A stretch of 64,000 bases of DNA, taken from Fictibacillus nanhaiensis (GTDB taxonomy: Bacteria; Bacillota; Bacilli; Bacillales; Fictibacillaceae). Of this stretch, positions 10,364-45,278 are shown piece by piece. The position numbers were made by a program, and so were the translations under genes. Each line of letters opens with the position of its first letter. Position 1 is the first letter of the stretch. Under the pieces are notes generated by a model. The model did not search any database, had not been told where the DNA came from, and saw only the letters and a program-made list of their open reading frames with translations. The stretch covers positions 62,001-126,000 of the forward strand of contig JAEACG010000006.1 of assembly GCA_016401345.1 (NCBI GenBank), given 5' to 3'.

Positions 10364-10566
10364 TGTTCACGTCCTTAAAAAATACTCTTCTCTATATAAT
10401 AGATGATTTTATTGGAAAAAGTTATGTTTTTTTGGTTAAGTGAGTAGTTTACCATATTTTTTGGGTGGTTGGGGTAGGGGAGATGTTTAAGTAAGTGATA
10501 GCTTATGAACTAAACGCATTCAAAAATGTACAGAAAGAGACTTGGTACGGTTCATGTACTTGGTCT

Positions 10567-10713
10567 GAGCAAAACAAGTATACGATTGAGCGAAAAAGAA
10601 GAGGATTGGGGTGAAACGTGAGCTATACGGAGCGAAACGCCCGACTGTTGGTGTGAAACGAAAGCCATATTGAGCGAACGTGTAATAAATATAAAAACAC
10701 GTACCGTAAAAAC
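10567..10713 (+). repeat. 21-bp phased repeat array A with terminal hairpin element
   Basis: Six units start at 10567, 10588, 10609, 10630, 10651 and 10672, exactly 21 bp apart. Each opens with a core like GAGCGAAACG, GGGTGAAACG or GTGTGAAACG, and the next ~11 bases differ between units. The last unit runs into ACGTGT, a 13-nt AT-rich loop, ACACGTACCGTAAAAAC, which is shared with arrays B-D. The array fills much of the 397-bp gap between pssA (start at 10363) and the rpiR-type gene (stop at 10761). I see nothing else definite in that gap. Confidence 0.85.
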
Positions 10714-10760
10714 AACTTTGTCCACATAAAATATGATAATTCGAGTCCACCCCATGAAGA

Positions 10761-11507
10761 TCACTTCACACTTCTCTTCAAATAACTCTCAAACAAAAGG
10801 TCGATCAATAGCATCAACGTTGATCTTGCTGTAATATCATAGCCTGCGAACTTTACACGGCCGACGGTCATGCTCAAGTTCGTCTTCACCATCTTGCCTA
10901 AAGTAGAGTCGGATGCGTTCGTGATCGCTGCTGTATCAACGACTTTATACGAAAGCTTCTCGGCTGCTTGCACAAGTGTTTTCGTTTCGCCGCTTGACGA
11001 GATAAAGAACACGAGATCGTTCGGTTCTACCATATTCGGTAAAAGGTCGATCATGTGTGATTCGTATGTATAGTGAGTCTGCTTGTTCGTCTGCATGAGT
11101 AATTTGCTGAAGTACTCTGCCATCATTTTCGATAGACCTACACCAACCACCATCACTCGTTTTGCGTTCACGATTTTCTCACTCAATTTTTCGAGCTCCG
11201 TTTTTTGAATCGTTTCAAACGCGGAGACAAATTCCTCTTTATAGCGCTCAACCGGATTATCCCTCAACATGACATGCTGGTTTTCAATCGTTTTTAAAAT
11301 GTATTTCAGTTCCGAAAAGCCTTCAAGTCCGAGCTTATGCGACATGCGTACGATCGTTGTTGTACTCACGTTGTTCACTTTGGCGATCTCGGTTAACGAA
11401 TGCGTTTTTGCTTCATCTATATGGTTGTCTATGTAATACAGTACTTGTTTTTCAGTCGGTGTAAGTTCAGCTAACTTGCTGCTGAACTGATCTAGAAACT
11501 TCCCCAT
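10761..11507 (-). CDS. RpiR/MurR-family transcription regulator of the PTS operon
   Basis: The product has an N-terminal RpiR helix-turn-helix (EIAKVNNVSTTTIVRMSHKLG) and a C-terminal SIS sugar-phosphate-binding domain (MVVGVGLSKMMAEYF, then FISSSGET). Members sense phosphosugars in the cytoplasm. The start at 11507 is chosen because GAGGA lies ~9 nt upstream; the in-frame start at 11555 has no such site. It is divergent from the PTS-mannosidase operon, so it very likely controls that operon. The candidate operators between them are listed separately. E. coli MngR, by contrast, belongs to the GntR family. Confidence 0.88.
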   Translation of the reverse strand: MGKFLDQFSSKLAELTPTEKQVLYYIDNHIDEAKTHSLTEIAKVNNVSTTTIVRMSHKLGLEGFSELKYILKTIENQHVMLRDNPVERYKEEFVSAFETIQKTELEKLSEKIVNAKRVMVVGVGLSKMMAEYFSKLLMQTNKQTHYTYESHMIDLLPNMVEPNDLVFFISSSGETKTLVQAAEKLSYKVVDTAAITNASDSTLGKMVKTNLSMTVGRVKFAGYDITARSTLMLLIDLLFESYLKRSVK

Positions 11508-11565
11508 CGTTAACTTCCTCATTTCCGTACGATTCTTTCTCTTAGTATAGCCCATTTTTCATTCT

Positions 11566-11577
11566 GTACAAATGTAC
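11566..11577. promoter_or_regulatory. Candidate RpiR-family operator
   Basis: GTACAAATGTAC has arms GTACA/TGTAC around two bases. A further TGTACAAAG lies at 11584-11592, about two turns away. They sit in the divergent gap between the rpiR-type gene and the PTS gene, so they are good candidates for the regulator's sites. Binding is inferred from position only. Confidence 0.4.
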
Positions 11578-11590
11578 GGACTCTGTACAA

Positions 11591-11604
11591 AGATAACGCT
11601 TACT
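11591..11604 (-). promoter_or_regulatory. cre-like site
   Basis: On the - strand AGTAAGCGTTATCT matches TGWAANCGNTNWCA at 12 of 14 positions (the first and last bases differ). It stands ~60 bp before the PTS gene, as expected for CcpA control of a sugar operon. Confidence 0.35.
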
Positions 11605-11663
11605 TTCATGTTACAAATAGAGTATAGAAAGTTGGAAGTGCTTTCATACTAGGGGAGATTGGA

Positions 11664-13634
11664 GTGAACGTCATGGAACTAAGAAACATGACCCATCCGA
11701 ATTTAGTGTTGTTCGATGTGGATGCTCAAAATAAAGAGCAAGTTATTCGGCAGCTAATTTCAAAGATTAAAAAACAAAATTATATAGAATCTGAAGAAGC
11801 TTTATTGGAAGCGGTGTTAAAACGTGAGGAGCAATCTCCGACAGGCATGGAGAAAGGGCTAGCGATTCCGCACGGAAAATCGGCAACGGTAAAACAAGCC
11901 GTCTTTGCGGTAGCTCGTCTCAAAACACCACTCCTAGATTGGGAAAGTATCGATCTGAACAATAAAGTTCAGCTCGTATTCTTGATCGCCATTCCTGAAA
12001 GTGAAGCCGGAACGACGCATTTAAAAGTATTGTCTACACTAAGCACAAATTTGATGCGCGATGGCTACTTGGAAGGTTTGATGGCAGCCGGAACAACAGA
12101 AGAATTTTTAAACAGGCTGGATGTTGAAAAGAAGACGGAAGTTACGACTGAAAAAGAGTTCACGAAGACCGTTGTTGCTGTTACAGCTTGTGCAACAGGT
12201 ATCGCGCATACGTACATGGCAGCTGAAGCGTTAGAAAAAGCAGGACGTGAGCTAGGTGTTTCTGTACTCGTTGAAAAGCAAGGTGCGAGCGGAATTGAAG
12301 ATGAGTTATCAGCTGAGGTTATAAAAAACGCGGATGCTGTCATCTTCGCAACGGATATTGCACCAAAGCAAAAAGACCGTTTTGCAGGTAAATCGTATGT
12401 GCAAACGCGTGTAGCTGAACCATTACGAAAAGGGAAAGAAATGATTCAAAAAGCGCTGAGTAACCCTGATGGTGTTGTTGAAGCAGAGGAAGAAGAATCA
12501 TCTACTTCACAATCAAGTGGCGGAGGCGGATTCTTTAAAGATATGGTCCAAGCGGTAATGACAGGGATCTCTTACATGATTCCCGTTATCGTTGCAGGTG
12601 GATTGATGATGGGGATCGCAAAGCTCGGTGCGATGCCGTTCGGACTTGTAAACGAACTTGCTGATCCGAAATACGCTACACATTCAAACGAGATATTCGT
12701 TATTCTGCACCACCTCGATAAGTTTGGAGCACTCATATTCAAATTCATGTATCCGATATTTGCCGCGTTCGTCGCGTATTCACTGGCTGACCGCGTTGGT
12801 CTAGTAGCCGGATTTATCGGAGGAGCTTTTGCTGGCGGACTTCATTACACGTTCTGGAACAACCCGGAAGGCATTCCGTCTGGATTTTTAGGAGCGTTGA
12901 TCCTCGGTCTTGCAGCAGGTTATATCGCTCGCTTCTTGAACCGAAAAATACAGTTGAACAAAAACTTAGCTGCGATGAAGCCGATGTTTCTCATCCCAGC
13001 GATCTCTGTACTATCGATCTTTTTCTTGAACTTTTATATTGTAGACCCTGTTTTTGGCGGTCTGAACGTTGTGTTACGCAACTGGATCGAGTCTGCACAA
13101 GGAACTGGTGACGTTGTGCTTGCATCGATCATCGCTTCTGCAACTGCTTTTGACTTAGGTGGACCGATCAACAAAGCAGCTGGTGCGATCGCGATCGGAC
13201 TTGCCGCTGATGAAGTGTATCCGTTAACAGCTCGCGTTCTAGCGATCGTTATTCCACCGATCGGCCTTGGAATCGCTGTTGTCATTGATAAATATATTGT
13301 CGGTCGCCGTGTATTCCCAGCAGACCTTCGTGTAGCAGGTAATACATCGTTGTTATTAGGATTCCTTGCAATTTCTGAAGGTGCGATACCGTTCATGCTT
13401 CGTAACCCGTTGATCACGATACCGATCAACATTATCGGTGCGATCCTTGGCGCAAGTACGGCTGTCTTGCTTGGAGCTGTTCAATGGCTTCCGCTTCCGG
13501 CAGTTTGGGGCTGGCCGCTCGTTGAGAACCTTTGGGCTTACTTGCTCGGACTCGTTGTCGGCGCTGCATTCATCGCATTCTCCAACATCTTTATACGCTT
13601 TGCGATTTTAAAGAAAAAAGAGAGACAAGCATAA
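11664..13634 (+). CDS. PTS fructose-family IIABC transporter, probably mannosyl/glucosyl-glycerate
   Basis: One chain carries EIIA (His70 in IPHGKS), EIIB (Cys176 in TACATGIAHTYMAA) and an EIIC membrane domain from about residue 290. It should phosphorylate its sugar during uptake with phosphate from HPr. The domain order matches E. coli MngA, the 2-O-alpha-mannosyl-D-glycerate permease. The next genes (GH38, GH13_18, glycerate kinase) support that substrate or its glucosyl analogue. Two starts are plausible, GTG 11664 after AGGGGAG and ATG 11673 after GGAG. A linker rich in Glu, Ser and Gly joins EIIB and EIIC. Confidence 0.9.
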   Translation: MNVMELRNMTHPNLVLFDVDAQNKEQVIRQLISKIKKQNYIESEEALLEAVLKREEQSPTGMEKGLAIPHGKSATVKQAVFAVARLKTPLLDWESIDLNNKVQLVFLIAIPESEAGTTHLKVLSTLSTNLMRDGYLEGLMAAGTTEEFLNRLDVEKKTEVTTEKEFTKTVVAVTACATGIAHTYMAAEALEKAGRELGVSVLVEKQGASGIEDELSAEVIKNADAVIFATDIAPKQKDRFAGKSYVQTRVAEPLRKGKEMIQKALSNPDGVVEAEEEESSTSQSSGGGGFFKDMVQAVMTGISYMIPVIVAGGLMMGIAKLGAMPFGLVNELADPKYATHSNEIFVILHHLDKFGALIFKFMYPIFAAFVAYSLADRVGLVAGFIGGAFAGGLHYTFWNNPEGIPSGFLGALILGLAAGYIARFLNRKIQLNKNLAAMKPMFLIPAISVLSIFFLNFYIVDPVFGGLNVVLRNWIESAQGTGDVVLASIIASATAFDLGGPINKAAGAIAIGLAADEVYPLTARVLAIVIPPIGLGIAVVIDKYIVGRRVFPADLRVAGNTSLLLGFLAISEGAIPFMLRNPLITIPINIIGAILGASTAVLLGAVQWLPLPAVWGWPLVENLWAYLLGLVVGAAFIAFSNIFIRFAILKKKERQA

Positions 13635-13662
13635 GAAGAAAAGCTTTGTTGTCCTTGGAAGA

Positions 13663-13792
13663 GGTTGATTTCCGCTTCAGGATGCTCGCTTTCCGGGGGG
13701 CGTGCGGTGAGCCACCTAGCGCTCTGCGCTGTTAGGTGTCTCACCTGTCCCGCTGATCCCCCAGGAGTCTCGCACCTTACGCTCCAATCAAC
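13663..13792. repeat. GC-rich inverted-repeat-bounded element, copy 1
   Basis: The element is bounded by GTTGATT and AATCAAC. It contains conserved blocks (GCTCGCTTTCCGGGGGGCG, GTGAGCCACCT, AGGTGTCTCACC, CCCGCTGATCCCCCAGG) that fold into nested hairpins. The flanks add TTGTCCT / AGGACAA. It lies between the PTS gene and mngB. A near-identical copy in reverse orientation is at 56187-56315 and a diverged one at 33609-33773. No ORF with a ribosome binding site was found in it. Confidence 0.85.
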
Positions 13793-13853
13793 TTACAAGG
13801 TCGAGAGGACAAAGTGAAATTGAAGCATTATCTCTAAAAATATCTAAAAAAAG

Positions 13854-13891
13854 AAAAGGGGCGCATCTTGTAAAAGGTGACCCCTCTTTCT
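13854..13891 (+). terminator. Terminator or attenuator before mngB
   Basis: AGGGG-CG-CATCTT pairs with AAGGTG-A-CCCCT, followed by CTTTCT. The T-run is short. It lies between the PTS gene and mngB, so partial read-through would let the two be expressed together. Confidence 0.6.
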
Positions 13892-13923
13892 ATTAAACGT
13901 GAGCAACTCGGGAGGGAAACAGC

Positions 13924-16590
13924 ATGAAACAGAAACAAAAAAAGGTATACGTCGTACCGCATTCGCATTGGGATCGCGAGTGGTACTTTACTATAGAAGA
14001 TTCAAACCTACTACTCGTAGAAAACATGGACCGATTGATGGATGTTATGGAGAAAGACCCTGAGTATACGGGTTATGTATTTGACGCGCAGAGCTCAATC
14101 ATTGATGAGTATCTAAAGATTCGTCCAGAAGAAAAAGAACGGTTGAGCCGTTTGATCGCCGATAAGCGTATTTTCGTAGGGCCATGGTACACACAAGCGG
14201 ATTCCCTATTGGTAAACCGAGAGTCATTGATCCGCAACTTGATGTACGGAACGCGAATCGCTGAAAAGACGGGTCACTCCCTGAACGTTGGTTATCTGCC
14301 TGATATTTTTGGTCAGAACACATATCTTCCGTCCCTGTTCAAAGAATTTGATATCGATTATAGCGTGTTACAGCGTGGAATCTATACCGATCAGTTGAAC
14401 GGTGATCTGAACTTCACGTGGCAATCCCCAGACGGCGAGAGCGTGAAGGCAAACAATATCTACTTCGGCTACGGTCCAGGAAAATTTTTATCTGATGATC
14501 CTCAGTACATGGAAGAACGATTGCTGCCTATTTTAGAAAAAATAGCTGATCTGAACGCGAGCACGGATAACTTGTTGTTGCCAGCCGGTGGTGACCAAGT
14601 GCTCGTTCGTGAGCATTTTCCTGAAACGGTAAAAAAGCTGAACGAAAAAGATGACAAACACGAATATGTGCTATCTGACTATGAAACGTTCATGAAGGAT
14701 ACGTGGCAAGAAGGAGATTTTAAGAACGTGATCGAAGGTGAGCTGATCGCGACTCAAAAATCTCGTATCCATAATACGATTCGTTCTCAGCGTTATGATA
14801 TCAAGAAACTTAATGATATTGCTGAAGAAAAGGTCATTTATGAACTTGAACCATTAGCGAGTTTTGCAAGTACGCTAGGTTTTAAATATCCGCAAAGATG
14901 GCTGGATGAGATGTGGAAGATGCTTTTCGATGTTCACGCGCATGACAGCATTGGTGGTTGTAATTCTGATGACACGAACCAAGAAATCGTGAATCGTCTT
15001 ACGAAAGTTATCCGAATTGCTGACGGCTGTTTGAATCTATTAAAAAAACAGATATCAGAAGCTGTGAGCCGTAAGCTAGGCAAAGATTCGATCTTTGTGA
15101 TGTTCCATCTGCTGCCTAAAGAGTTTGAAGGCTCTAAAAAAGTCGTTCTTTTTACAAAAGAAAAAGGGTTCGGTGTTCGTGACCTAGACGGAAATCCTGT
15201 TTTGTTCGACGTATTGAATCAGGAATATATCTCAGGTGGAAAGACGATCGTCGTTACGGCGGATGGCGAGAAAGAAGTAGAAGCGCCTGGTTATTACAGA
15301 AACGAAGTGCTTTTACAGAATGTGAAACTTCCGTCCATGGGCTATGAAACATTCCAAGTGGTAGAAGATGAAGTGATCGAACATGTAGCTCCGAAAGTTG
15401 AAGATAACCGTGCGATACAGAATGAGAGCTTCCGCATTTACGAGGAAGATGGCAGACTTCATTTAACGGTGAAGACATTGAACAAGACAATTTCGGACTT
15501 TGTAAAGTTTGAAAATGTTGCGGATGCGGGCGATTCATATGATTTCTCTCCACTTGCAGGAGATTCTCCGATTTATTCCCGAGAGATCGAATCTGTTTAT
15601 GTTGAGGGAAGTGAAGCTGTAGAATTCATGGAGGTCGTGCATCTGTTGCAGGTGTCGAAAGACTTGGAAGAACGAAAAGTTGGAGACGCAACTGGGAATT
15701 TAGCCATTGTAACCCGATTTGAACTACGCAGTGGTGAGGACTTTATCCGGGTTACACATGACATTGAAAACGAAGTAAAAGATCACCGCGTTCGCGTGTT
15801 GCTGCAAACTTCTGTTGAAGGACCAGATTACTCGTTCGGTGATCAAGGTTTCAGCTTGATTCAGCGCCCGACCGTTAATCCGTACATGGAGAACTGGAAA
15901 AAAGAAAAGTTCGCTGAAGCACCAGTGCCGATCTATCCGCTTGAAAATCTAGCAGGTGTAACGAACGGAGAGTTAACTTCTGCTGTTATCACGAAAGGCA
16001 TCAAAGAGTATGAGTTGATCAAAGAAACGGGGCAACTCGCTTTAACGCTGTTCCGAAGTGTTGGGCTGCTTGGTCGTGACAACTTAGCTTGGAGACCTGG
16101 CCGCGCGTCAGGTATCAACAACAAAGTCGTTTACACGCCAGATGCCCAAATGCAGACGAAAATGTCGTTCGAGTACGCAATTTCATTCACAGAAGGTCAT
16201 GATGTTAAACGGTTGTTTAACATGGTAGATAATTATCGCAGTCACAGTGTGAGTTATCAAAAGCAAGCGTTGAACACGTTTGAAGAGAGACTCGACCGTT
16301 TTGAAATTCCTTATCCAGTGGATATCTTGCCTGCGAGATTCAGCTTGTTTGAGACAGAAGGTGACCTGTTCCTAAGCACGATGAAAAAAGCGCATGACGA
16401 TGATTCGGTCGTCTTACGTTTGTTTAACCCGAGTGAGGTAGAACAGACAGTCTTATTAATAAGCGAACACATCCAGTCTGTTGCACAAACAAAACTGAAC
16501 GAAAAAAGTGTGATCGACGTGAAAGACGAAGTGACGGTTCGAGCAAAAGGATATGTCACACTAAAGCTTCGTATGAAGGAGAATGTGTAA
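13924..16590 (+). CDS. mngB: GH38 alpha-mannosidase (mannosylglycerate hydrolase)
   Basis: This is an 888-residue GH38 enzyme. The zinc motif HSHWDREW is at residues 13-20, the catalytic nucleophile is probably Asp127 in LPDIFGQ, and the second metal cluster is HAHDSIGGC near 338-346. The family's E. coli member MngB hydrolyses 6-phospho-mannosylglycerate from the PTS to mannose-6-P and glycerate. Position after a fructose-family PTS and before a glycerate kinase strongly supports the same role. GGGAGGG precedes the ATG. The stop codon overlaps the next ATG (TAATG), so the two are translationally coupled. It acts in the cytoplasm; no signal peptide is present. Confidence 0.9.
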   Translation: MKQKQKKVYVVPHSHWDREWYFTIEDSNLLLVENMDRLMDVMEKDPEYTGYVFDAQSSIIDEYLKIRPEEKERLSRLIADKRIFVGPWYTQADSLLVNRESLIRNLMYGTRIAEKTGHSLNVGYLPDIFGQNTYLPSLFKEFDIDYSVLQRGIYTDQLNGDLNFTWQSPDGESVKANNIYFGYGPGKFLSDDPQYMEERLLPILEKIADLNASTDNLLLPAGGDQVLVREHFPETVKKLNEKDDKHEYVLSDYETFMKDTWQEGDFKNVIEGELIATQKSRIHNTIRSQRYDIKKLNDIAEEKVIYELEPLASFASTLGFKYPQRWLDEMWKMLFDVHAHDSIGGCNSDDTNQEIVNRLTKVIRIADGCLNLLKKQISEAVSRKLGKDSIFVMFHLLPKEFEGSKKVVLFTKEKGFGVRDLDGNPVLFDVLNQEYISGGKTIVVTADGEKEVEAPGYYRNEVLLQNVKLPSMGYETFQVVEDEVIEHVAPKVEDNRAIQNESFRIYEEDGRLHLTVKTLNKTISDFVKFENVADAGDSYDFSPLAGDSPIYSREIESVYVEGSEAVEFMEVVHLLQVSKDLEERKVGDATGNLAIVTRFELRSGEDFIRVTHDIENEVKDHRVRVLLQTSVEGPDYSFGDQGFSLIQRPTVNPYMENWKKEKFAEAPVPIYPLENLAGVTNGELTSAVITKGIKEYELIKETGQLALTLFRSVGLLGRDNLAWRPGRASGINNKVVYTPDAQMQTKMSFEYAISFTEGHDVKRLFNMVDNYRSHSVSYQKQALNTFEERLDRFEIPYPVDILPARFSLFETEGDLFLSTMKKAHDDDSVVLRLFNPSEVEQTVLLISEHIQSVAQTKLNEKSVIDVKDEVTVRAKGYVTLKLRMKENV

Positions 16591-18263
16591 TGAGTTTTCC
16601 AAAAAAAGTTGAGAATTTGTTAAAAACGATCTATGGCGAAGAATTTTCATCTACCTATAAAGATGAAATCATAAAGCTTGTTGATGGGTGGAAAGAGAAG
16701 AAGTGGAGCGAGACAGCTCCACTTTCTGAAAAAAATGTGTATCTGATCACGTACGGCGACATCATTAAAGAAGAAGGAGAATCAACGTTAAAAACGCTGA
16801 ACAAGTTCATTAACGAATACGCGGCAGATGAGATTACGGATGTACATTTGTTACCGATGTTTCCGTATACGTCTGACGATGGTTTTTCGGTCGTTGATTA
16901 TCGTGAGATTCACCCTGAACTAGGGAACTGGTCGGATATTGAACATTTCTCAAGCGATTATCGTTTAATGTTTGATTTTGTGGCGAACCATATGTCGAAG
17001 TCGAGCAAGTGGTTTCAAGGCTATCTGAAGGGTGAGGCAGAATATGCGAACTATTTTACCCCGAAAGAAGAAGGTTTCGATGCTTCAAACGTCGTGCGTC
17101 CTCGCACCTCTCCGCTATTTCACGAGTACGAAGGTGGAAAGACTGCGTGGACCACATTCTCTGAAGACCAGGTGGATGTGAACTTTAAGCATTTTCCTGC
17201 GTTGCTGGAGATGACGGATATTTTACTGAATTACGCGAACCGCGGTGGGACAAGCATTCGCCTAGACGCGATCGGTTTCATGTGGAAAGAATCAGGTACG
17301 ACTTGTATTCATCTTCCTCAAACACATGCAATCATTCAGTTGTGGCGTGAGATTTTAGAAGAGCTGAAGTTAAACACGCTCTTGATCACAGAGACAAATG
17401 TTCCGCATAAAGAGAATATCAGCTATTTTGGTGACGGAAACAATGAAGCACATATGGTGTACCAATTTTCACTACCGCCGCTCGTATTGCACACGTTAAC
17501 GACTCATGATGCGAGTAAGCTGACGGGTTGGGCGAAGTCGATTGAAAAGGTGTCTGATTCGGCTACGTACTTTAACTTTTTAGCGAGTCATGACGGTATC
17601 GGCATGCGTCCAACAGAAGGAATTTTAACAGAAGATGAGCGTTCCTCATTGGCTAAAAAAGTGTTGAGTAACGGCGGTCGTGTTTCGTATAAAAGTAACC
17701 CAGACGGAACGGAATCTCCTTACGAGCTGAACATCAATTACATGGATGCGCTCAACAATAAAGACGAAGATACGAGTGAAGATATGCAAGTGCAAAAAAT
17801 GCTTGCGGCACATTCCGTTTTGTTCTCCGTGATGGGTGTTCCAGCCGTCTATTATCATTCATTATTAGGGTCTGAAAACGATTATGAAGGATTGGAGTCG
17901 TCAGGAATCAACCGCCGGATCAATCGTCAAAAGTTTCAGTACGATGAGTTGGTAGCTGATTTGGAAACATCTACTCGACGTCAAAAAGTGTTTACAGGGT
18001 TGAAGCGTTTGATTCGTACGCGTCAGCAGGAAACGGCGTTCTCGCCATTCGCTTCACAGTCGATTGTAGATCTTGGGAAGCAGGTATTCTCACTGATTCG
18101 AAGAAATGAAGAAACAGGTGACACGGTGCTGTTCGTGATGAACGCATCGAACAAACTGATCGATGTGGAACTTCCTTTCGGCGGGCAAGACTTGTGGAGT
18201 GGCAATTCTGTTGAGAGAACTGTTGAACTTGTTCCGTATCAGTTTATGTGGATTAAAAAATAA
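16590..18263 (+). CDS. GH13_18 enzyme, likely glucosylglycerate phosphorylase
   Basis: The 557-residue protein belongs to the sucrose-phosphorylase subfamily of GH13. The nucleophile is Asp226 (RLDAIGF), the acid/base Glu268 (ITETNVPH) and the third acid Asp335 (ASHDGIGMRP). The segment FMWKESGTTCIHLPQTH matches the glucosylglycerate-phosphorylase branch (E. coli YcjM type), not sucrose phosphorylase. Length fits too. The reaction would release glycerate and a glucose phosphate. Because uptake here is by PTS, the true substrate may be 6-phospho-glucosylglycerate. The start overlaps the mngB stop. Confidence 0.85.
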   Translation: MSFPKKVENLLKTIYGEEFSSTYKDEIIKLVDGWKEKKWSETAPLSEKNVYLITYGDIIKEEGESTLKTLNKFINEYAADEITDVHLLPMFPYTSDDGFSVVDYREIHPELGNWSDIEHFSSDYRLMFDFVANHMSKSSKWFQGYLKGEAEYANYFTPKEEGFDASNVVRPRTSPLFHEYEGGKTAWTTFSEDQVDVNFKHFPALLEMTDILLNYANRGGTSIRLDAIGFMWKESGTTCIHLPQTHAIIQLWREILEELKLNTLLITETNVPHKENISYFGDGNNEAHMVYQFSLPPLVLHTLTTHDASKLTGWAKSIEKVSDSATYFNFLASHDGIGMRPTEGILTEDERSSLAKKVLSNGGRVSYKSNPDGTESPYELNINYMDALNNKDEDTSEDMQVQKMLAAHSVLFSVMGVPAVYYHSLLGSENDYEGLESSGINRRINRQKFQYDELVADLETSTRRQKVFTGLKRLIRTRQQETAFSPFASQSIVDLGKQVFSLIRRNEETGDTVLFVMNASNKLIDVELPFGGQDLWSGNSVERTVELVPYQFMWIKK

Positions 18264-19961: not shown

Positions 19962-20729
19962 ATGAGTATTATTGATATTAACTGTGATATGGGCGAGAGT
20001 TTTGGCGCTTACAAACTCGGAACAGACGAAGAGATTTTAAAATACATAACATCAGCCAACATCGCATGTGGTTTTCATGCGGGAGATCCTGCGACGATGA
20101 GAAAAACCGTTAAATTAGCATTAGAGCATGGCGTTGGAATCGGTGTTCATCCGGGGTTGCCTGATCTGGCTGGATTCGGCCGCCGAAACATCGATATCTC
20201 TCCACAGGAAGCATATGAGATGGTGGTTTATCAGATTGGTTCGTTGTGGGGATTTGTACAGGCTGAAGGCGGAACGATTCAACACGTGAAACCGCATGGT
20301 GCGCTTTATAACATGGCAGCGGTGAATCGTGAACTGTCTGAAGCGATTGCCGAAGCCGTTTACAAAGTGAATCCTGAGCTTATTCTGTTCGGACTTGCAG
20401 GGAGTGAGCTCGTTCAGGCAGGTGAAAAGGTTGGGCTGCGCACAGCATCTGAAGTTTTCGCCGATCGTACGTATCAGCAAGATCGCACGCTTACTTCACG
20501 CAAATTGCCACATGCTGTGATTACGGATGATGATGCGGCTGTCGCACAAGTGATTCGTATGGCTAAAGAGGGAAAAGTGATGACGCAGCAAGATGTTGAC
20601 GTCGATATTAAGGCTGATACGGTTTGCATCCACGGTGATGGTGCGCATGCACTGAGTTTTGCGAAGAAAATTAGACAAACGTTAGAGGATTCTGGGATCT
20701 CTGTACGTAAAATCGGAGAAAGTATTTAA
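19962..20729 (+). CDS. pxpA: 5-oxoprolinase subunit A (LamB/YcsF family)
   Basis: The 255-residue protein has the YcsF hallmarks [28 protein letters not shown] and [10 protein letters not shown]. PxpA acts with PxpB and PxpC to open 5-oxoproline (pyroglutamate) to glutamate with ATP. In B. subtilis ycsF (pxpA) heads the same operon as pxpB and pxpC. Here it is alone, with its own ribosome binding site (AGGAGG) and a strong terminator, about 22 kb from pxpBC. It presumably works in trans with them. Promoter control may involve the TTAAACA palindrome just upstream. Confidence 0.93.
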
Positions 20730-20775: not shown

Positions 20776-20815
20776 AATGTGTGGTAGATTGGTTTTTTGT
20801 GGTTAGGAGTGGTTT

Positions 20816-20945
20816 TCAGGTGGTGGAGGGACGATGAGCGGTAAAAAATGAAGTCTCACCGGTGGAAGCTCTCACTTTACAGGTAGAACGACCGACTTTA
20901 CCGGCGAACGTGTAACAAATATAGAAACACGTACCGTAAAACCCC
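20816..20945 (+). repeat. 21-bp phased repeat array B with terminal hairpin element
   Basis: Five units start at 20816, 20837, 20858, 20879 and 20900, exactly 21 bp apart. The core is ACCGGTGGAA (variants TCAGGTGG, AGCGGTAA, ACAGGTAG, ACCGGCGAACG). The last unit merges into the shared element ACGTGT...ACACGTACCGTAAAAC. It separates the pxpA terminator from the next gene. Confidence 0.85.
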
Positions 20946-30273: not shown

Positions 30274-31647
30274 ATGGAAGTATCAGGAGCACAAATGGTA
30301 GCTGGTTTAGTTCTTGGGGTTATTGCTTTAATTTTTCTCGTTTTAAAAACAAAGATTCACGCTTTTCTAGCTCTGATCATTGCGGCATCAATTGCCGGTC
30401 TTGTCGGAGGTATGGAACCTGGTAAAGTCGCTGATACCATCTCGGCTGGGTTCGGTAGTACGCTTGCCTCTATCGGGATCGTTATCGGACTCGGTGTGAT
30501 GATCGGACGGATTCTCGAAGTGTCCGGAGCGGCTGAAATACTGGCATATTCACTAATAAAAGCTGTTGGCAGGAAAAAAGAAGAATGGGCTATGGCGATT
30601 GCGGGTTATGTGGTTTCCATTCCGATTTTTGTTGACTCAGCGTTTGTTATTTTAAATCCACTCGTAAAAGCTCTATCTAAGAAAACGGGGAAGTCGGTCG
30701 TGTCATTAGGTGTTGCTTTAGCAGTGGGTCTTGTGATCACCCACTCTTTAGTACCGCCAACGCCTGGTCCTTTAGGTGTAGCAGGAATCTTTGGAGTAGA
30801 TATCGGTCTTATGATCGCACTAGGTCTTCTTTTTGCCATTCCGACTATGATTGCAGGCGTTCTTTATGCGAAATGGATTGGGAAACGAATCTATCAAGTG
30901 CCAGATGATTCAGAGCTAGGGTTCACACGACCTACTAAACAAGCAGCTTATCAAGAGTTTATCGAGCTAGCTAGTACACGAGAGAATGATCTGCCGTCTT
31001 TAGGACGCTCCCTTTTACCGATCGTTCTGCCGATTCTATTAATCTTTTTAAACACCACGTTAACCGCACTCGAACTTACATCTGGATTTTACGGAATCCT
31101 GATTTTCCTAGGAAAGCCGATTATCGCCGTAAGTATCGGATTAATTGTAGCAATCTATGCCTTAGCTGGTAACTTGAGTCGCTCTGAATCACTTGACCGC
31201 ATGGAAGAGGGAATTCAGACAGCAGGTATCATCCTGTTAGTAACAGGTGCAGGTGGCGCGCTTGGTAATGTCCTTCGTGAGAGTGGAGCGGGGAACTTTA
31301 TCGCTGAAAAAATTGCAGACCTTCCACTTCCTGCAATCTTGATTCCGTTCTTTGTCGCAACGATTGTTCGCCTTGTTCAAGGAAGTGGAACAGTAGCGAT
31401 GATAACTGCAGCATCTATTTCAGCACCGATCCTTTCTCAGCTAGATGTGAACATGGCACTCGCCGCTCAAGCTGCAGCGATGGGTTCGATGATCTTCTCG
31501 TACTTTAACGACAGCTTGTTCTGGGTGGTTAACAGGATGTTAGGCATTAAAGAGGTAAAAGAACAGATTATGGTCTGGTCTGTACCGACGACGATCTGTT
31601 GGTTCGTAGGATTAGTGTCACTGTTAGTCGCGAATATGATTTTTTAA
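30274..31647 (+). CDS. GntP-family acid-sugar permease
   Basis: The 457-residue integral membrane protein has about 12-14 helices. It shows the GntP/GntT family blocks GLVLGVIALIFLVLKTKIHAF, the loop ITHSLVPPTPGP and GSGTVAMITAASISAP. These are proton symporters for gluconate and other sugar acids. As last gene of the operon it most likely imports the acid that the kinase phosphorylates. AGGGGGT is the ribosome binding site. The stop codon lies inside a TTTAAACA palindrome. Confidence 0.9.
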   Translation: MEVSGAQMVAGLVLGVIALIFLVLKTKIHAFLALIIAASIAGLVGGMEPGKVADTISAGFGSTLASIGIVIGLGVMIGRILEVSGAAEILAYSLIKAVGRKKEEWAMAIAGYVVSIPIFVDSAFVILNPLVKALSKKTGKSVVSLGVALAVGLVITHSLVPPTPGPLGVAGIFGVDIGLMIALGLLFAIPTMIAGVLYAKWIGKRIYQVPDDSELGFTRPTKQAAYQEFIELASTRENDLPSLGRSLLPIVLPILLIFLNTTLTALELTSGFYGILIFLGKPIIAVSIGLIVAIYALAGNLSRSESLDRMEEGIQTAGIILLVTGAGGALGNVLRESGAGNFIAEKIADLPLPAILIPFFVATIVRLVQGSGTVAMITAASISAPILSQLDVNMALAAQAAAMGSMIFSYFNDSLFWVVNRMLGIKEVKEQIMVWSVPTTICWFVGLVSLLVANMIF

Positions 31648-31715: not shown

Positions 31716-31863
31716 TTTTACAGTACGTGTTTTGATCATTCATTACGCGTTCGCCGGTAAAGTTCTCGTTTTCACCGTTAAACGTGTTCGCTCCACCGTT
31801 CAACTCTCGCTTTGCACCCGTAACCAAGCTGTGACGACCGCTAAGCAGCTCACGACCACCGCT
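31716..31863 (-). repeat. 21-bp phased repeat array C with terminal hairpin element (reverse orientation)
   Basis: Read on the - strand, six units start at 31863, 31842, 31821, 31800, 31779 and 31758, exactly 21 bp apart. Cores are AGCGGTGG, AGCGGTCG, ACGGGTGC, AACGGTGG, AACGGTGA and ACCGGCGAACG. The last unit passes into ACGCGT...ACACGTACTGTAAAA, the terminal element of arrays A, B and D. It lies between convergent gntP and histidine kinase genes. Confidence 0.85.
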
Positions 31864-31933: not shown

Positions 31934-33475
31934 TTATTTATGAACAGGATCAACAGCTGATGCCGCATGAACTGGTAATGTGATCCGAAATGAGGTGCCT
32001 TCGTTCCGTTTGCTGTCTACCAGAATCGTTCCTCCATGGTTGTGAATGATTTTAAAACAGACCATCAGCCCGAGGCCCGTACCGTTGCATTTTGTCGTAT
32101 AGAACGGCTCGCCGATTCTTTTTTGTTGCTCATCTGTCATGCCGACTCCGTTATCTTTGACCGTAAGAACGACATGGCCGTCAACTGGAGCAGCAGAGAG
32201 CGAGATCTTACCTCCGTCAGGCAGTGCTTCCATCGCGTTTTTGATCATGTTGATGATCACTTGTGTCAACTGGTTCTTTTCACCGTAGACGAGAGGCATG
32301 TTTTTTTCTTTCTCAAAGGAAATAATGACGTTGCGTAAATTCGCTTCAGGCTGCATGAGATCGATGACGTTCTGGATGCTTTCAACGATATTGAACCAGC
32401 TGAAATAGACAGCATGGGGTTTTGCTAGGACCATTAGTTCACTCACGATAAAATTGATGCGATTGATCTCCGTCAGAATGATGTCTTTAAAGAAGGTATT
32501 CTTCTCCTGATCGGATTCGTTAATGAGCTGAACGAGCCCTGCGATCGATGTAAGAGGATTGCGGATCTCATGAGCGATTCCTGCGGCTAAATCGCCGATC
32601 AGCGAAACCTTTTCAGACTTCAATAGAATCTCCTCTGTTTTCTTTTTCTCCGTCACATCGTATTGGATTGAGATGTGCTGATAAGCCACACCTTCCGGAT
32701 CTAGAAATGGAACGATCGTCGTATCCACCCAATAGAGCGAGCCGTCTTTCGCTTTGTTGCAGATCTCACCGTTCCATACGCGTCCTGCTTTGATCTCTTG
32801 TTTAATATGATGAATGAAGCTATCTGAATGAACGCCTGAATAGAAGATCTTGCCGTGATCTTGTCCGATCAAATCTTCGCGGGTATATTGCGTTAACTCA
32901 CAAAAGTGATCGTTCACTTGAATGATGCGATCGTCTTTGTCTGTAACGGAGAAGATCGTTCCTTCAAAGAGAGCGGTTCGAATGTTGTTTAACTCTAGGA
33001 TTGAGATATCTAAATCTCGATTTGTATGTTGAAGAGCTTTTTTCGTGTTATGCATGAATTTTGTATAGTGTGTAGCGATTGAACGAGCAGCGGTATCGAT
33101 CAAAAGGTTCAGGCGATTGGATGCAGTAATAGCACCATCAGCGTTAGTACTGTATGTTTCAAAGTCTTCCTTTAAAAACTGTGAAAGGATAACCCGGGAT
33201 TCAAAGATAAAATGAAGGGCGTGATCGAGCGGAATTTCCAACTCGGATGAGCGCTGGCCGAATGAGTCAGCCCATTTTTTGATCTTTTCTTCAGCGGTTT
33301 GAACATTTTCCGATAAGCCTTCACCTAAGTATTGAAAAAGAATTTCCATCCAGTGAGATACTTTGGTTTTGTAGATCGAAAAATCAGTTCCTAAGTTCTC
33401 GATCGGCGTTAGTGTGTCTACAAGTTGTTTGCTGTTTTCTTTTATTTTCGTTCCTAGCTTCCTACAACCTTCCAT
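31934..33475 (-). CDS. Soluble RsbRD_N-PAS sensor histidine kinase
   Basis: The 513 residues have no membrane helix. The first ~170 resemble the globin-like RsbR/RsbRD N-terminal domain. A PAS domain follows (IFSVTDKDDRIIQVNDHFCELTQ), then HisKA with AHEIRNPLTSI, and HATPase with the N, G1 and G2 boxes. It senses an internal signal, and PAS suggests redox, oxygen or a ligand. No response regulator is adjacent, so it is an orphan kinase, reminiscent of sporulation kinases that feed the phosphorelay. The ribosome binding site GAGGAGG is clear. Confidence 0.88.
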   Translation of the reverse strand: MEGCRKLGTKIKENSKQLVDTLTPIENLGTDFSIYKTKVSHWMEILFQYLGEGLSENVQTAEEKIKKWADSFGQRSSELEIPLDHALHFIFESRVILSQFLKEDFETYSTNADGAITASNRLNLLIDTAARSIATHYTKFMHNTKKALQHTNRDLDISILELNNIRTALFEGTIFSVTDKDDRIIQVNDHFCELTQYTREDLIGQDHGKIFYSGVHSDSFIHHIKQEIKAGRVWNGEICNKAKDGSLYWVDTTIVPFLDPEGVAYQHISIQYDVTEKKKTEEILLKSEKVSLIGDLAAGIAHEIRNPLTSIAGLVQLINESDQEKNTFFKDIILTEINRINFIVSELMVLAKPHAVYFSWFNIVESIQNVIDLMQPEANLRNVIISFEKEKNMPLVYGEKNQLTQVIINMIKNAMEALPDGGKISLSAAPVDGHVVLTVKDNGVGMTDEQQKRIGEPFYTTKCNGTGLGLMVCFKIIHNHGGTILVDSKRNEGTSFRITLPVHAASAVDPVHK

Positions 33476-38058: not shown

Positions 38059-38868
38059 ATGAATATCGTTAAAGTGTTAAACCAACTAGGTGACCGATTT
38101 CTCAAATTGAGGGTGTACGATTTATCGGCACAGATGGCCTATTATTTTTTAATGTCGGTCTTTCCATTTTTGCTTGTTATCTATTCATTGCTGACATATT
38201 TACCACTAAGAGAAGAAAATATTTTAGAGCTAGTCCAGCCGTATGCGCCAGAGAGCACATACAATCTAATTGATAAGACATTATCCTATACCGTTATGAG
38301 ACAAGAAGGAAATCTGTTGTCGTTCAGCTTGATCGTCACTTTGTGGCTTTCATCGATGGGTTTTCAAAGTATGAAGCGTATCATGAACGATGCGTACCAA
38401 GTGCGAAATAACGAGAACATGCTAAAACAGATCTTAGAAAGTCTGTTGTTAACCGTTGGATTCATGATCGCTGTTCTGTTCTCTGTATTTGTTCCGTTGT
38501 TTGAAAAAATCCTGCGGGTGTATTTGGAAGGCATCTTTTCGAACCTAGCTTTTCAAAAGCTATGGATCATTATCCAGTGGGGAATAGGAACTGTGTTTCT
38601 GCTATTGTTTTTCATCATGCTATATTCCTTTGCCCCGAGCATCAAGCTTGGATTTAAAAATGTACTTCCGGGTGCATTTCTTGCGACGATCGGCTGGCAG
38701 CTCGTTTCGATGGGCTTCGCTACGTACGTGAGTGGAAGTAACTATTCTGCGCTTTACGGGCAAGTAGCAGGTCTCGTCGTTCTGATGCTGTGGTTCTACC
38801 TGTCAGCGATGATCATCATCCTAGGTGGATTGCTGAATACGGTGGTGTACCCTAAAAAGATTAATTGA
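38059..38868 (+). CDS. YihY/BrkB-family membrane protein
   Basis: 269 residues with about six helices. Family blocks include AQMAYYFLMSVFPFLLVIYSLL near residue 24, WLSSMGFQSMKRIMNDAY, and the region GFKNVLPGAFLATIGWQLVSMGFATYV. Older annotations called these RNase BN, which was an error; a transport or envelope role is suspected. AGAGGTG precedes the ATG. It is a single-gene unit with a good terminator. Confidence 0.9.
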   Translation: MNIVKVLNQLGDRFLKLRVYDLSAQMAYYFLMSVFPFLLVIYSLLTYLPLREENILELVQPYAPESTYNLIDKTLSYTVMRQEGNLLSFSLIVTLWLSSMGFQSMKRIMNDAYQVRNNENMLKQILESLLLTVGFMIAVLFSVFVPLFEKILRVYLEGIFSNLAFQKLWIIIQWGIGTVFLLLFFIMLYSFAPSIKLGFKNVLPGAFLATIGWQLVSMGFATYVSGSNYSALYGQVAGLVVLMLWFYLSAMIIILGGLLNTVVYPKKIN

Positions 38869-38890
38869 AAATTGAAAATCAAATTAAACA

Positions 38891-38933
38891 GGAAGATGCA
38901 GAAGTAAATAACAATTCTGCATCTTTTTTTATT
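38891..38933 (+). terminator. Rho-independent terminator
   Basis: AAGATGCAGAA / TTCTGCATCTT with TTTTT following. Confidence 0.88.
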
Positions 38934-39071
38934 CTTTAAGTTAGAAATAATGTCTATTCTACTATTTAACACGAAACAAAAAATAAAATTTGGTAAGGTT
39001 TAACTATTCCCCTATAAGTTTACGTGCGATAAAATCATTATGGATATTCAATTATTAAGAGGGGGAAAACA

Positions 39072-39653
39072 ATGAAAAGATATTCAAGAATAATTAGTTT
39101 TGTGTTGATTTTTGTGTTTGTTTTATCTGCCTACAATGTTAGAAGCGCAGATGCATTAACTTATCGAGCGGGAGATATTATTGTTACTAATTCTACAAGC
39201 TCTAGCGGTATTGTAGGTCATTCAGGTATTTTTATTAACTCAAATACTATCTTGCATACATCTGGGTGGAAAAGCGAACCGTATCCTTTAACAATCTCAC
39301 TATCAAAATGGAATGATAGATATGAAAAAAGTAAGGTTATAAGGCCAGATTCAGCAACTAAAGGACAGAAGGCGGCAGATGCAGCCATAAAATATTTCAA
39401 AGGAAAAACTATCAATTATAAGATTACGCCAAATCCTAGAGATATAAATCCTAATACATATTGTAGTGAGTTAGTATGGTATGCTTATTATAAAGCTGGG
39501 TATTCAATCAAAAAGCCATTAATGGACCAAACGGGTATTTATGCATGGTATACTCCTGGCAGTGGGGATTACATTTATCCATATGATTTTGCCAATAAAA
39601 CCATTATGGATAACTCAGTGAATGCCTTCACTGTAATTGATGATAAATTCTAG
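39072..39653 (+). CDS. Secreted YiiX-like permuted papain-fold hydrolase
   Basis: A signal peptide (residues ~1-28) leads into a circularly permuted NlpC/P60-like domain of the YiiX (DUF830) type. The conserved His50 is in VGHSGIF and the probable nucleophile Cys131 in TYCSELVWYAYYKAG. Members cleave amide or thioester bonds, often on lipid- or wall-linked substrates. AGAGGGGG is the ribosome binding site. It is likely exported, and its substrate is unknown. A bidirectional terminator follows. Confidence 0.8.
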   Translation: MKRYSRIISFVLIFVFVLSAYNVRSADALTYRAGDIIVTNSTSSSGIVGHSGIFINSNTILHTSGWKSEPYPLTISLSKWNDRYEKSKVIRPDSATKGQKAADAAIKYFKGKTINYKITPNPRDINPNTYCSELVWYAYYKAGYSIKKPLMDQTGIYAWYTPGSGDYIYPYDFANKTIMDNSVNAFTVIDDKF

Positions 39654-39745
39654 CAATGTGAATGTTTGTGAAAAGTAACTTACTTATAAAAAGTTTGATT
39701 ACAAACCTTCATTTGAAAAATTAATATTGGCTATTTTTAAAAATT

Positions 39746-39783
39746 TAAAAAAGCACGACTTTTATAAAAGTCGTGCTTTTACT
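39746..39783. terminator. Bidirectional terminator
   Basis: A perfect stem AAAAGCACGACTTTT / AAAAGTCGTGCTTTT with a very short loop lies between convergent genes. Confidence 0.9.
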
Positions 39784-40106
39784 TATTCCATGTATGTTTT
39801 TCCATTTAATACATACGATTCTAAAACAACTCTGTTTTTATCTCTTTCTTTATAATAATAGTAAGTTTTCTTATCTTTTTCGAGTTTAACTGCTACCATA
39901 TAATTTTTATCGCCTTCAAGATTTGCTATAAAAGGCTGAAGGCTTTTAATTTCACTTTTTTTAGTTCCGTTATCAATTAAGTAATGTTCAACAGCTTTTT
40001 CAGTGTCCTGTTTTTTGTAAGCAAAATAGCTCCATACACCGCCACCTGCAAATCCTATAAAAATAATAACAGAAGCAATTAACTTTATGAAAAATCTCTT
40101 TTTCAT
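39783..40106 (-). CDS. DUF3139-like small membrane protein
   Basis: 107 residues with one N-terminal membrane helix (LIASVIIFIGFAGGGVW) and an extracytoplasmic domain. The stretch YLIDNGTKKSEIKSLQPFIANLEGDKNYMVAV then KKTYYYYKERDKNRVVLE matches the DUF3139 pattern. An AGGAGG site precedes the ATG at 40106. Function is unknown. Confidence 0.75.
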   Translation of the reverse strand: MKKRFFIKLIASVIIFIGFAGGGVWSYFAYKKQDTEKAVEHYLIDNGTKKSEIKSLQPFIANLEGDKNYMVAVKLEKDKKTYYYYKERDKNRVVLESYVLNGKTYME

Positions 40107-40146
40107 ATAAAAATCCTCCTATTGATTATTTGGGTCGAGAACAATG

Positions 40147-40938
40147 TTACAAAACGCCATACTTTTCATCACGAACATCAGTAATGAACATGTGTCCGGG
40201 AGCATGCGTAATCATGACCTCAGGCTTCACATGCATTGCGACAGCTTGAGGAGTTACTCCACAAGCCCAAAACACAGGAACTTCACCGTCATGAATCTGA
40301 ACAGGGTCACCAAAATCGGGCTGATACAGATCTTGAATCCCGATCGCTTCTGGATTTCCAATATGAACTGGAGCTCCGTGAACAGAAGGGAAGCGGCTCG
40401 TTACCTGAACAGCTCGAACGACATCTTTTTCAGGAACCGGACGCATGCTAACAACCATCGGACCTTCGAAACGTCCAGCTTTCACGCATTCTATGTTTGT
40501 TTTAAACATGGGTACGTTACAGCCGCGCTCGATATGACGAACAGGAATGCCGTTATTCATCAGCGCATGCTCGAACGTAAAGCTACAACCGAGCAGGAAG
40601 CCTACCATGTCTTCATTCCAGTGTTCTGTGATATTTGTACACTCTTCAACAAGTTCGCCATGCCGATAGACGTTATACTTCGGTATGTCCACACGTAGAT
40701 CGGCATCAGGTGCAACAAGTGCAGGAACACCGGAACCTGGCTCAGTTACATCAAGTACCGGACAAGGCTTCGGATTTCTCTGACAGAAAAGGAGGAACTC
40801 AAAAGCTAGATCTTTCGGCAACACCACAAGATTTCCTTGTGTAAAGCCATTTGCAAGTCCGCTTGTCGGCTTCCTCCACTCACCGCGGCGTATTAGTTCA
40901 CGAGCTTCAACTGGAGTTAAACGGTCTAGGGCGTTCAT
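40147..40938 (-). CDS. ycsI: YcsI-family putative hydro-lyase (DUF1445)
   Basis: 263 residues with the DUF1445 blocks LTPVEARELIRRGEW, TSGLANGFTQGNLVVLPKDLAFEFLLFCQRNP, GCSFTFEHAL and HAPGHMFITD. Related proteins act as D-glutamate cyclase or remain uncharacterised. In B. subtilis ycsI lies between ycsG and kipI; here it is the last gene, after ycsG. AAGGGGAG precedes the ATG. A role in providing or using 5-oxoproline is a plausible inference. Confidence 0.88.
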   Translation of the reverse strand: MNALDRLTPVEARELIRRGEWRKPTSGLANGFTQGNLVVLPKDLAFEFLLFCQRNPKPCPVLDVTEPGSGVPALVAPDADLRVDIPKYNVYRHGELVEECTNITEHWNEDMVGFLLGCSFTFEHALMNNGIPVRHIERGCNVPMFKTNIECVKAGRFEGPMVVSMRPVPEKDVVRAVQVTSRFPSVHGAPVHIGNPEAIGIQDLYQPDFGDPVQIHDGEVPVFWACGVTPQAVAMHVKPEVMITHAPGHMFITDVRDEKYGVL

Positions 40939-44060: not shown

Positions 44061-44079
44061 AATGGGAGGGACTATACCC

Positions 44080-45130: not shown

Positions 45131-45278
45131 AACGGTGAAAAGGTGTAGTTTGCAGGTGGTTATAGTAGAGTTAGCGGTGGTCAGAAGCTCATCACAGGTG
45201 GAAATACACATCTTACCGGTGGAATCTCGATTTTTATCGGCAAACGTGTAACAAATATAAAAACATGTACCGTAAAAA
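45131..45278 (+). repeat. 21-bp phased repeat array D with terminal hairpin element
   Basis: Six units start at 45131, 45152, 45173, 45194, 45215 and 45236, exactly 21 bp apart, with cores AACGGTGA, GCAGGTGG, AGCGGTGG, ACAGGTGG, ACCGGTGG and ATCGGCAAACG. A seventh, one base out of step, may precede them near 45111. The last unit leads into ACGTGT...ACATGTACCGTAAAAAC. It lies between manA and the convergent LacI gene. Confidence 0.85.

What the first reader, a model, noticed from the sequence alone, without database searches (positions are those of the whole stretch)
10567..10713. Array A: six intergenic units on an exact 21-bp period, capped by a shared hairpin element
The core (GAGCGAAACG / GGGTGAAACG / GTGTGAAACG) recurs every 21 bp with unrelated bases between. 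21 bp equals two helical turns, so the cores face one side of the DNA. The same construction, ending in ACGTGT-N13-ACACGTACCGTAAAA, occurs at three other places in this window (arrays B, C, D), each between genes. A common core is GGYGRAA. I know of no described Bacillus repeat of this exact form, though simple intergenic repeats exist. Alternatives are a multivalent protein-binding array (nucleoid or regulator), a small structured RNA, or a repeat peptide.
Basis: seen in the sequence. Interest (0 to 1): 0.85.

Follow-up and report, generated by a model that had tools for sequence, protein, structure and literature searches.

The report
Six-unit phased DNA arrays between genes
The window carries four of about two dozen short DNA arrays in a Fictibacillus chromosome, each with six copies of a short word about two helical turns apart plus a constant end; the layout looks like dispersed docking sites for an unknown chromosome-organising protein, and similar arrays occur in related genera.

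Summary
Array A has six cores at exact 21-bp steps plus a cap (ACGTGT-N13-ACACGT-ACCGTAAAA). This Fictibacillus genome holds at least 23 such arrays; 17 of 18 genus genomes have them. Of 164 arrays read, 122 have exactly six units; 758 of 769 steps are 20 or 21 bp. Core and cap are conserved; spacers drift about twice as fast as cores. Arrays fall into word classes (TGAGCGAAA, TGCGTGAAA, GGGGTGAAA, ACAGGTGGWA); at 9 of 41 syntenic sites the class differs between species while geometry and cap stay. No excess RNA folding, no Rfam match. Related arrays without this cap occur in other genera of the order, in three of them mostly with exactly five units. Arrays lie mostly after gene ends; in four of six near-complete chromosomes they run with replication (also in gene-neutral positions), in two not; they are denser towards the origin in four of six. 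Best reading: multivalent, direction-bearing protein-binding sites for chromosome organisation, working like RacA ram or Noc sites. The protein is not identified: RacA is a candidate with evidence both ways; no extra ParB copy was found. An insertion-driven or selfish origin is the main rival.

The parts
10567..10676 (+). Array A, six cores (GAGCAAAACA, GAGCGAAAAA, GGGTGAAACG, GAGCGAAACG, GTGTGAAACG, GAGCGAACGT) at 10567, 10588, 10609, 10630, 10651, 10672
   Evidence: sequence; same place in relatives G010 and G012 with cores kept; absent in G006, which lacks the whole stretch 10462-18262
10678..10711 (+). Cap of array A: ACGTGT-N13-ACACGT inverted repeat followed by ACCGTAAAA
   Evidence: sequence; cap composition over 150 caps of modal length
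20796..20941 (+). Array B, class II (AGGTGG type), six units and cap, behind an intrinsic-terminator-like hairpin after the LamB/YcsF-family gene 19962-20729
   Evidence: at the same place in G010, G012, G006
31716..31862 (-). Array C, class II, six units and cap, between convergent genes (GntP permease 30274-31647 + and histidine kinase 31934-33475 -)
   Evidence: at the same place in G010, G012 and G006
45132..45277 (+). Array D, class II here, six units and cap, behind the terminator of the mannose-6-phosphate isomerase-like gene 44062-45060; class I arrays stand at this place in G010, G012 and G009, and the genes beyond the cap differ

Best explanation
Each array is a multivalent binding site for an oligomeric DNA-binding protein. 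Shown: repeated cores at 20-21 bp steps in a near-fixed number, a conserved cap that gives the site a direction, cores and cap conserved relative to spacers, no excess RNA structure, many copies per chromosome mostly behind gene ends, direction following replication in four of six chromosomes, enrichment towards the origin in four of six. Inferred: one subunit (or wHTH/HTH domain) reads each core on one face of the helix, the cap is the nucleation or end site, and the assembled nucleoprotein complex organises, anchors or marks the origin-side part of the chromosome, so that it works like RacA ram sites or Noc sites rather than like a promoter operator. The word can change as long as all units of an array change together, because avidity over six phased cores, not one strong site, does the work. 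The protein is unknown.
For: Geometry: 122 of 164 arrays have exactly six units; 758 of 769 steps are 20 or 21 bp. Constraint: in 34 overlapping ortholog pairs differences are 342/1496 (0.23) in spacers, 119/1088 (0.11) at the eight core positions not used as filter (0.015 at -1, 0.037 at -3) and 45/1054 (0.04) in the cap, with gene-rich flanks 91.2% identical. Within-array identity of the word at -3 and -1 exceeds between-array identity by 0.30 and 0.26 in 33 non-redundant class I21 arrays (0 of 300 permutations). Context: convergent 52, divergent 7, tandem 97 (72 with the genes, 25 against) of 156. Position kept while word changes: 9 of 41 syntenic sites, e.g. flanks 96.5% and 82.8% identical around unrelated arrays. 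Polarity: G003 24/30, G010 17/21, G147 30/37, G258 29/31 leaving out three arrays near the skew switch; arrays between convergent or divergent genes 28:8 in G003+G010+G147 and 15:0 in G258. Origin side: G003, G010, G147, G099. Passages on RacA ram sites (dense near the origin; PMC6593407) and Noc sites (about 70, absent from the terminus; PMC4331003) describe the model behaviour.
Against: No binding protein is shown. Two chromosomes with arrays show no polarity (G037 10/19, G099 8/16) and two show no origin bias (G258, G037); on the own genome's contig C20 only 2 of 5 arrays run with replication. In Fictibacillus alone the gene-neutral polarity is modest (15:5). Array-free Fictibacillus G001 exists, so the function is dispensable. 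In classes I20 and II no extra within-array word identity is seen. Some arrays have fewer units (32 of 164 have under six by the script).
Confidence: 0.42

Rival explanations
1. A small non-autonomous mobile or selfish element (MITE/REP-like) whose orientation and place come from how it inserts (for example into the lagging-strand template at forks), with the repeats being binding sites for its own enzyme.
For: 115 array pairs at least 68% alike have neither flank in common, so copies do disperse, mainly class I20; gene content changes right at arrays D and E; insertion-type polarity would also ignore transcription; near-perfect tandem 21-bp arrays exist in other genera.
Against: No clean empty site or target duplication was found in the few sites read; positions are kept in two or more species at 41 sites; spacers of arrays in one genome are mostly unrelated while cap and word are kept, which is not expected of recent copies; array A has no match in plasmid and phage collections and the cap none in viral contigs.
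Confidence: 0.25
2. The arrays are the RacA-binding (ram-like, centromere-like) sites of these bacteria.
For: RacA homologs are present in the six Fictibacillus genomes tested and in G147, G048, weakly G214 and G099 (NCBIfam RacA models; the DNA-binding domain matches RacA structures 5i41/5i44). ram sites are dense near the origin (PMC6593407, passages). RacA contacts YpG steps and binds GC-rich DNA (PMC5859096, passages); the word centre G-Y-G holds such a step in the Fictibacillus classes.
Against: RacA binds as a symmetric dimer (same passages) while the arrays are direct repeats; array-rich G258 and G037 give no RacA match with the one model used, though that model is weak even in the B. 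subtilis control; array-free G001 has RacA with the same recognition helix as array-bearing genomes, and the helix does not change between G007, G017 and others whose words differ.
Confidence: 0.15
3. A transcription-linked element: a protein roadblock or insulator behind gene ends that stops read-through, co-oriented with the upstream gene.
For: 124 of 156 arrays follow a same-strand gene and only 7 lie between divergent genes; terminator-like hairpins precede 28 of 118 tested arrays against 1.15 in shuffles.
Against: Where gene direction gives no cue, orientation still follows replication (28:8, and 15:0 in G258), and arrays between lagging-strand tandem genes follow replication 8:2 and 5:0; many arrays sit behind complete terminators already.
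Confidence: 0.1
4. A small structured RNA or guide-like array.
For: Inverted repeat in the cap; repeat-spacer layout resembles guide arrays by analogy only.
Against: Fold energies equal shuffles; no Rfam match; spacers drift between orthologs; the inverted repeat is missing in other genera.
Confidence: 0.04
5. Passive decay products: 21-bp tandem duplications that arose by slippage and whose apparent conservation is recency.
For: Near-perfect 21-bp tandem arrays in G283, G164, G302, G290.
Against: Core and cap change more slowly than spacers in the same arrays; near-fixed unit number; constant cap.
Confidence: 0.04

Closest known systems
STAR elements of Staphylococcus (PMC3532100, passages)
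   Same: Intergenic direct repeats with spacers that differ between loci, kept at stable places, unknown function.
   Different: STAR units are 14 bp of another sequence with at least 40 bp between them and variable number; here about 10-bp cores at 20-21 bp steps, near-fixed number, constant cap, replication polarity.
RacA ram sites of B. subtilis (PMC6593407, passages)
   Same: Many dispersed chromosomal sites, dense near the origin, in spore formers of the same order; RacA homologs present in most genomes tested.
   Different: ram sites bind a symmetric RacA dimer; a phased six-unit direct-repeat build is not described in the passages seen.
Noc-binding sites of B. subtilis (PMC4331003, passages)
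   Same: Tens of dispersed sites, absent from the terminus region.
   Different: Noc sites are palindromes; both ParB-like proteins are present in array-free G001 too; terminus depletion of arrays holds only in some genomes.
KOPS / AIMS polar octamers (PMC5993296, passages)
   Same: Direction follows replication.
   Different: Single octamers that increase towards the terminus; arrays are long composite sites that are rarer there or even.
Iteron arrays of plasmid origins (recalled, no call)
   Same: Direct repeats about two helical turns apart in small fixed numbers.
   Different: One origin per replicon with conserved spacers; here tens of chromosomal copies with random spacers.
BldC-type cooperative MerR-like binding to direct repeats (PMC5859096, passages)
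   Same: Head-to-tail multimers on direct repeats of varying number give the site a direction.
   Different: Other sequence and step (its consensus repeat is AATTXXXX(C)); transcription regulator in Streptomyces.

Membership tests
STAR elements | 14-bp repeat T(G/A/T)TGTTG(G/T)GGCCC(C/A) with at least 40 bp between | tested here: not met
   Cores are GNGYGRWA-type with 20-21 bp steps; definition from passages of PMC3532100
RacA ram sites | Bound by RacA | not testable with these tools
   RacA homologs present in 10 of 12 genomes tested, absent by this model in G258 and G037
RacA ram sites | Dense near the origin | tested here: inconclusive
   Yes in G003, G010, G147, G099; no in G258, G037
RacA ram sites | Reader and site co-vary | tested here: not met
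   Recognition helix VNPTTVQRWVRHFN is the same in G000, G001 (no arrays), G003, G007, G010, G017 although words differ
Noc-binding sites | Palindromic single site bound by a ParB-like protein specific to the system | tested here: not met
   Arrays are direct repeats; every one of 18 genus genomes has exactly two HTH_ParB proteins, array-free G001 included
KOPS/AIMS | Leading-strand bias | tested here: inconclusive
   Met in G003, G010, G147, G258; not in G037, G099
KOPS/AIMS | Abundance rises towards the terminus | tested here: not met
   Opposite in four of six genomes, flat in two
Known RNA family | Rfam match or excess fold stability | tested here: not met
MITE/REP-type mobile element | Clean empty sites, terminal repeats or target duplications | tested here: inconclusive
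   Few sites read, none clean; no conserved 5' boundary in Fictibacillus
CRISPR-like or other guide arrays | Associated nuclease gene and spacers matching foreign DNA | not tested
   Only indirect: spacers drift between orthologous arrays; no cas-type search was made

The most novel reading that the evidence does not exclude
A widespread class of centromere-like chromosomal elements in this bacterial order: composite sites of five (or five plus one capped) cores two helical turns apart, read by an unknown oligomeric protein family, which carry replication direction and mark the origin-side chromosome, and whose recognition word turns over rapidly (all units of a site together, and place by place) while geometry and genomic address are kept, as in centromere evolution.
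Probability: 0.3. Interest if true: 0.93.

Novelty: new variant of a known kind. Interest (0 to 1): 0.8.

Why it matters
If these are dispersed, directional, multivalent docking sites, they point to a chromosome-organising system in spore-forming bacteria that has not been named in the papers found here (searches; library of open-licence papers only). The near-fixed number of cores gives a direct structural prediction (an assembly reading five or six sites spaced by two turns), and the change of word at a fixed address offers a bacterial case of centromere-like turnover that can be tested with one pull-down.

Tried and rejected
RNA reading: folds at shuffle level, no Rfam match. ParB-like extra copy as reader (words resemble a parS half site, from recall): two HTH_ParB proteins in each of 18 genomes, no difference in array-free G001. 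RacA as reader: left open, see rivals. Mobile carriers: array A gave no match in plasmids and phages (one query each), the cap no match in viral contigs. Composite transposon with arrays as ends: inverted arrays E and D enclose ordinary metabolic genes. GC-skew as cause of polarity: the GCGCGAAA word lies on the leading strand in G258 but on the lagging strand in G147, so skew alone does not explain it; the sense counted for G147 (unit to cap) was chosen after seeing the result. Alignment A1 was useless because loci from '-' places had not been turned; replaced by A2. One search ended with a script error after printing the arrays. One search's word matrix drifted to class I and was replaced. 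The crude ORF caller lets 56 of 164 arrays overlap an ORF of 80 aa or more; I take these as spurious but did not test each. In the G147 polarity count two arrays (near 429146 and 2402583) with near-equal scores on both strands were left out, and a third (1091025) also; one of 36 had no flank sequence. For G258 the arm boundary of 1.62 Mb was set after seeing the strands; the skew switches between 1.72 and 1.93 Mb, so three arrays there are ambiguous and are left out of the 29/31.

Full report
Observation. Array A (window 10567-10711) is as described: six cores at exact 21-bp steps, the last one fused to a cap ACGTGT-N13-ACACGT-ACCGTAAAA. Arrays B, C and D repeat the build with another core and small tail changes.

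Extent. In the own genome (4.28 Mb, 26 contigs) 23 arrays were read out of 30 fetched loci of a loose tail search with 32 matches; 7 loci were unrelated. The strict cap pattern gives 20 matches and no control match. The same family is in 15 of 18 genus genomes by exact pattern; with a sequence model G007 and G017 also have arrays with variant words, and only G001 has none. None of the 16 genomes of three other genera of the family has the cap pattern.

Anatomy. From the loci then held, 164 distinct arrays (orthologs included) were measured: 112 class I, 52 class II; exactly six units in 82 and 40 of them, 122 of 164; 32 have fewer and 10... by the same table 11 have seven or eight. Steps: 590 of 21 bp, 168 of 20 bp, 11 other. 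A shuffled control gave 0 units in 159 of 164 arrays and 1 in 5 (earlier matrix). Class I splits into I21 (sum of five steps 105 in 38 of 44) and I20 (sum 101 or 102 in 36 of 38); class II has 105 in 36 of 40. The invariant centre is G-Y-G (positions -2 to 0). The cap is nearly invariant in 150 caps of modal length, partly because the search pattern demands it. No conserved 5' boundary is seen.

Selection. In 34 overlapping ortholog pairs with both flanks alike, spacers differ at 0.23, cores at 0.11 (eight positions; -2 and 0 were filter positions and are left out), the cap at 0.04, while gene-rich flanks are 91.2% identical. So core and cap are held, spacers are not. In I21 arrays units share the variable letters at -3 and -1 within an array far more than between arrays (0 of 300 permutations); classes I20 and II show no such excess.

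Address kept, word changed. Of 187 arrays with flanks, 123 fall into 41 syntenic sites with arrays from two or more places; 9 sites hold both class I and class II arrays by the script's classes. At one, the upstream flank is 96.5% and the downstream flank 82.8% identical while the arrays are of different classes (L005, L184). At array D the window has class II and three relatives class I behind the same terminator, and the genes beyond the cap differ. Conversely 115 pairs of arrays at least 68% alike share neither flank, so arrays also disperse.

Context and direction. Of 156 arrays with both neighbours called, 52 lie between convergent genes, 7 between divergent ones, 72 in tandem with and 25 against the genes. 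Replication direction was set by dnaA and GC skew. Arrays run with replication in 24 of 30 (G003), 17 of 21 (G010), 30 of 37 (G147, sense chosen after the fact) and 29 of 31 (G258, three near the skew switch left out), but 10 of 19 in G037 and 8 of 16 in G099. Between convergent or divergent genes, where gene direction gives no cue, it is 10:4, 5:1, 13:3 and 15:0 (some of these may be among the ambiguous three). On own contig C20 only 2 of 5 run with replication, on C23 6 of 8 if its arm is as in G010. Mean distance from the origin is below uniform expectation in G003, G010, G147 and G099 (simulated fractions 0.003, 0.001, 0.0006, 0.012) but not in G258 (0.31) or G037 (0.19); these tests ignore clustering. 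In G012 contig C10 no array lies between 0.61 and 2.89 Mb.

Beyond the genus. A model of class I arrays matched 67 of 299 genomes of the order at E 0.001 or better, 9 of them of the own genus; outside it the matches shown cover the units, not the cap. Twenty such loci from 17 genomes were read: most show GNGCGAAA-like words at about 21 bp; G164, G283, G302 and G290 are near-perfect tandem repeats and G070, G248 and G064 repeat blocks of units. In three genera read more closely the number is mostly five and never more by the script: G147 25 of 37 chains (129 of 130 steps are 21 bp), G214 7 of 8, G048 4 of 6. G147 and G048 have their own upstream cap; that of G048 holds TTATCCACA, a DnaA box by recall. 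Fictibacillus arrays can be seen as five units plus a capped sixth.

What it is not. No excess RNA structure, no Rfam family. No match of array A in plasmids or phages, none of the cap in viral contigs. No extra ParB-type protein.

Who reads it. Unknown. RacA homologs occur in the six Fictibacillus genomes tested, G147, G048, weakly G214 and G099, not by this model in G258 and G037; NCBIfam and PDB matches name them RacA. For RacA speak ram sites dense near the origin and YpG contacts in GC-rich DNA; against it speak its symmetric dimer, the unchanged recognition helix across genomes with different words, and its presence in array-free G001.

Verdict. A real, conserved, widespread composite element; most likely a multivalent directional protein-binding site for chromosome organisation (0.42), with insertion-driven dispersal as main rival (0.25). 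It works like dispersed anchoring or occlusion sites but is not shown to be a member of any such family. The literature check is limited to ten searches of an open-licence library; papers were seen as listings or passages only.

Noticed in passing
window about 13640-13830: A different interspersed repeat (TTGGAAGAGGTTGATTTCC...GCTCCAATCAAC), which I recall as a common Bacillus intergenic repeat, stands where relative G012 has a six-unit array.
   Followed up: partly
window 38865-40147: Relatives G010, G012, G009 and G006 carry a further array (E) here; the window has instead a segment with a weak Amidase_5/NLPC_P60-like ORF and no array.
   Followed up: partly
L234, L239, L249, L254, L259 (G048): Five-unit arrays preceded by GAGTTATCCACAGA, a perfect DnaA-box-like word as genus-specific cap.
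   Followed up: partly
L312 near 1844 (G003): An array with the Fictibacillus cap whose units read like TGTGGATAA (DnaA-box-like) instead of GAGCGAAA.
   Followed up: no
L123 (two arrays), L143, L111: Arrays in which GAGCGAAA units alternate with a second word GGTTCGACAA.
   Followed up: no
L220 (G283), L223 (G302), L219 (G164), L228 (G290): Near-perfect 21-bp tandem arrays of 6 to over 20 units, possibly young stages of such arrays.
   Followed up: no
   Followed up: partly
class I20 arrays, e.g. L052, L066, L126: Steps of 20 and 21 bp are mixed, yet the sum over five steps is 101 or 102 in 36 of 38, narrower than free choice per step would give; orthologs are not removed.
   Followed up: no
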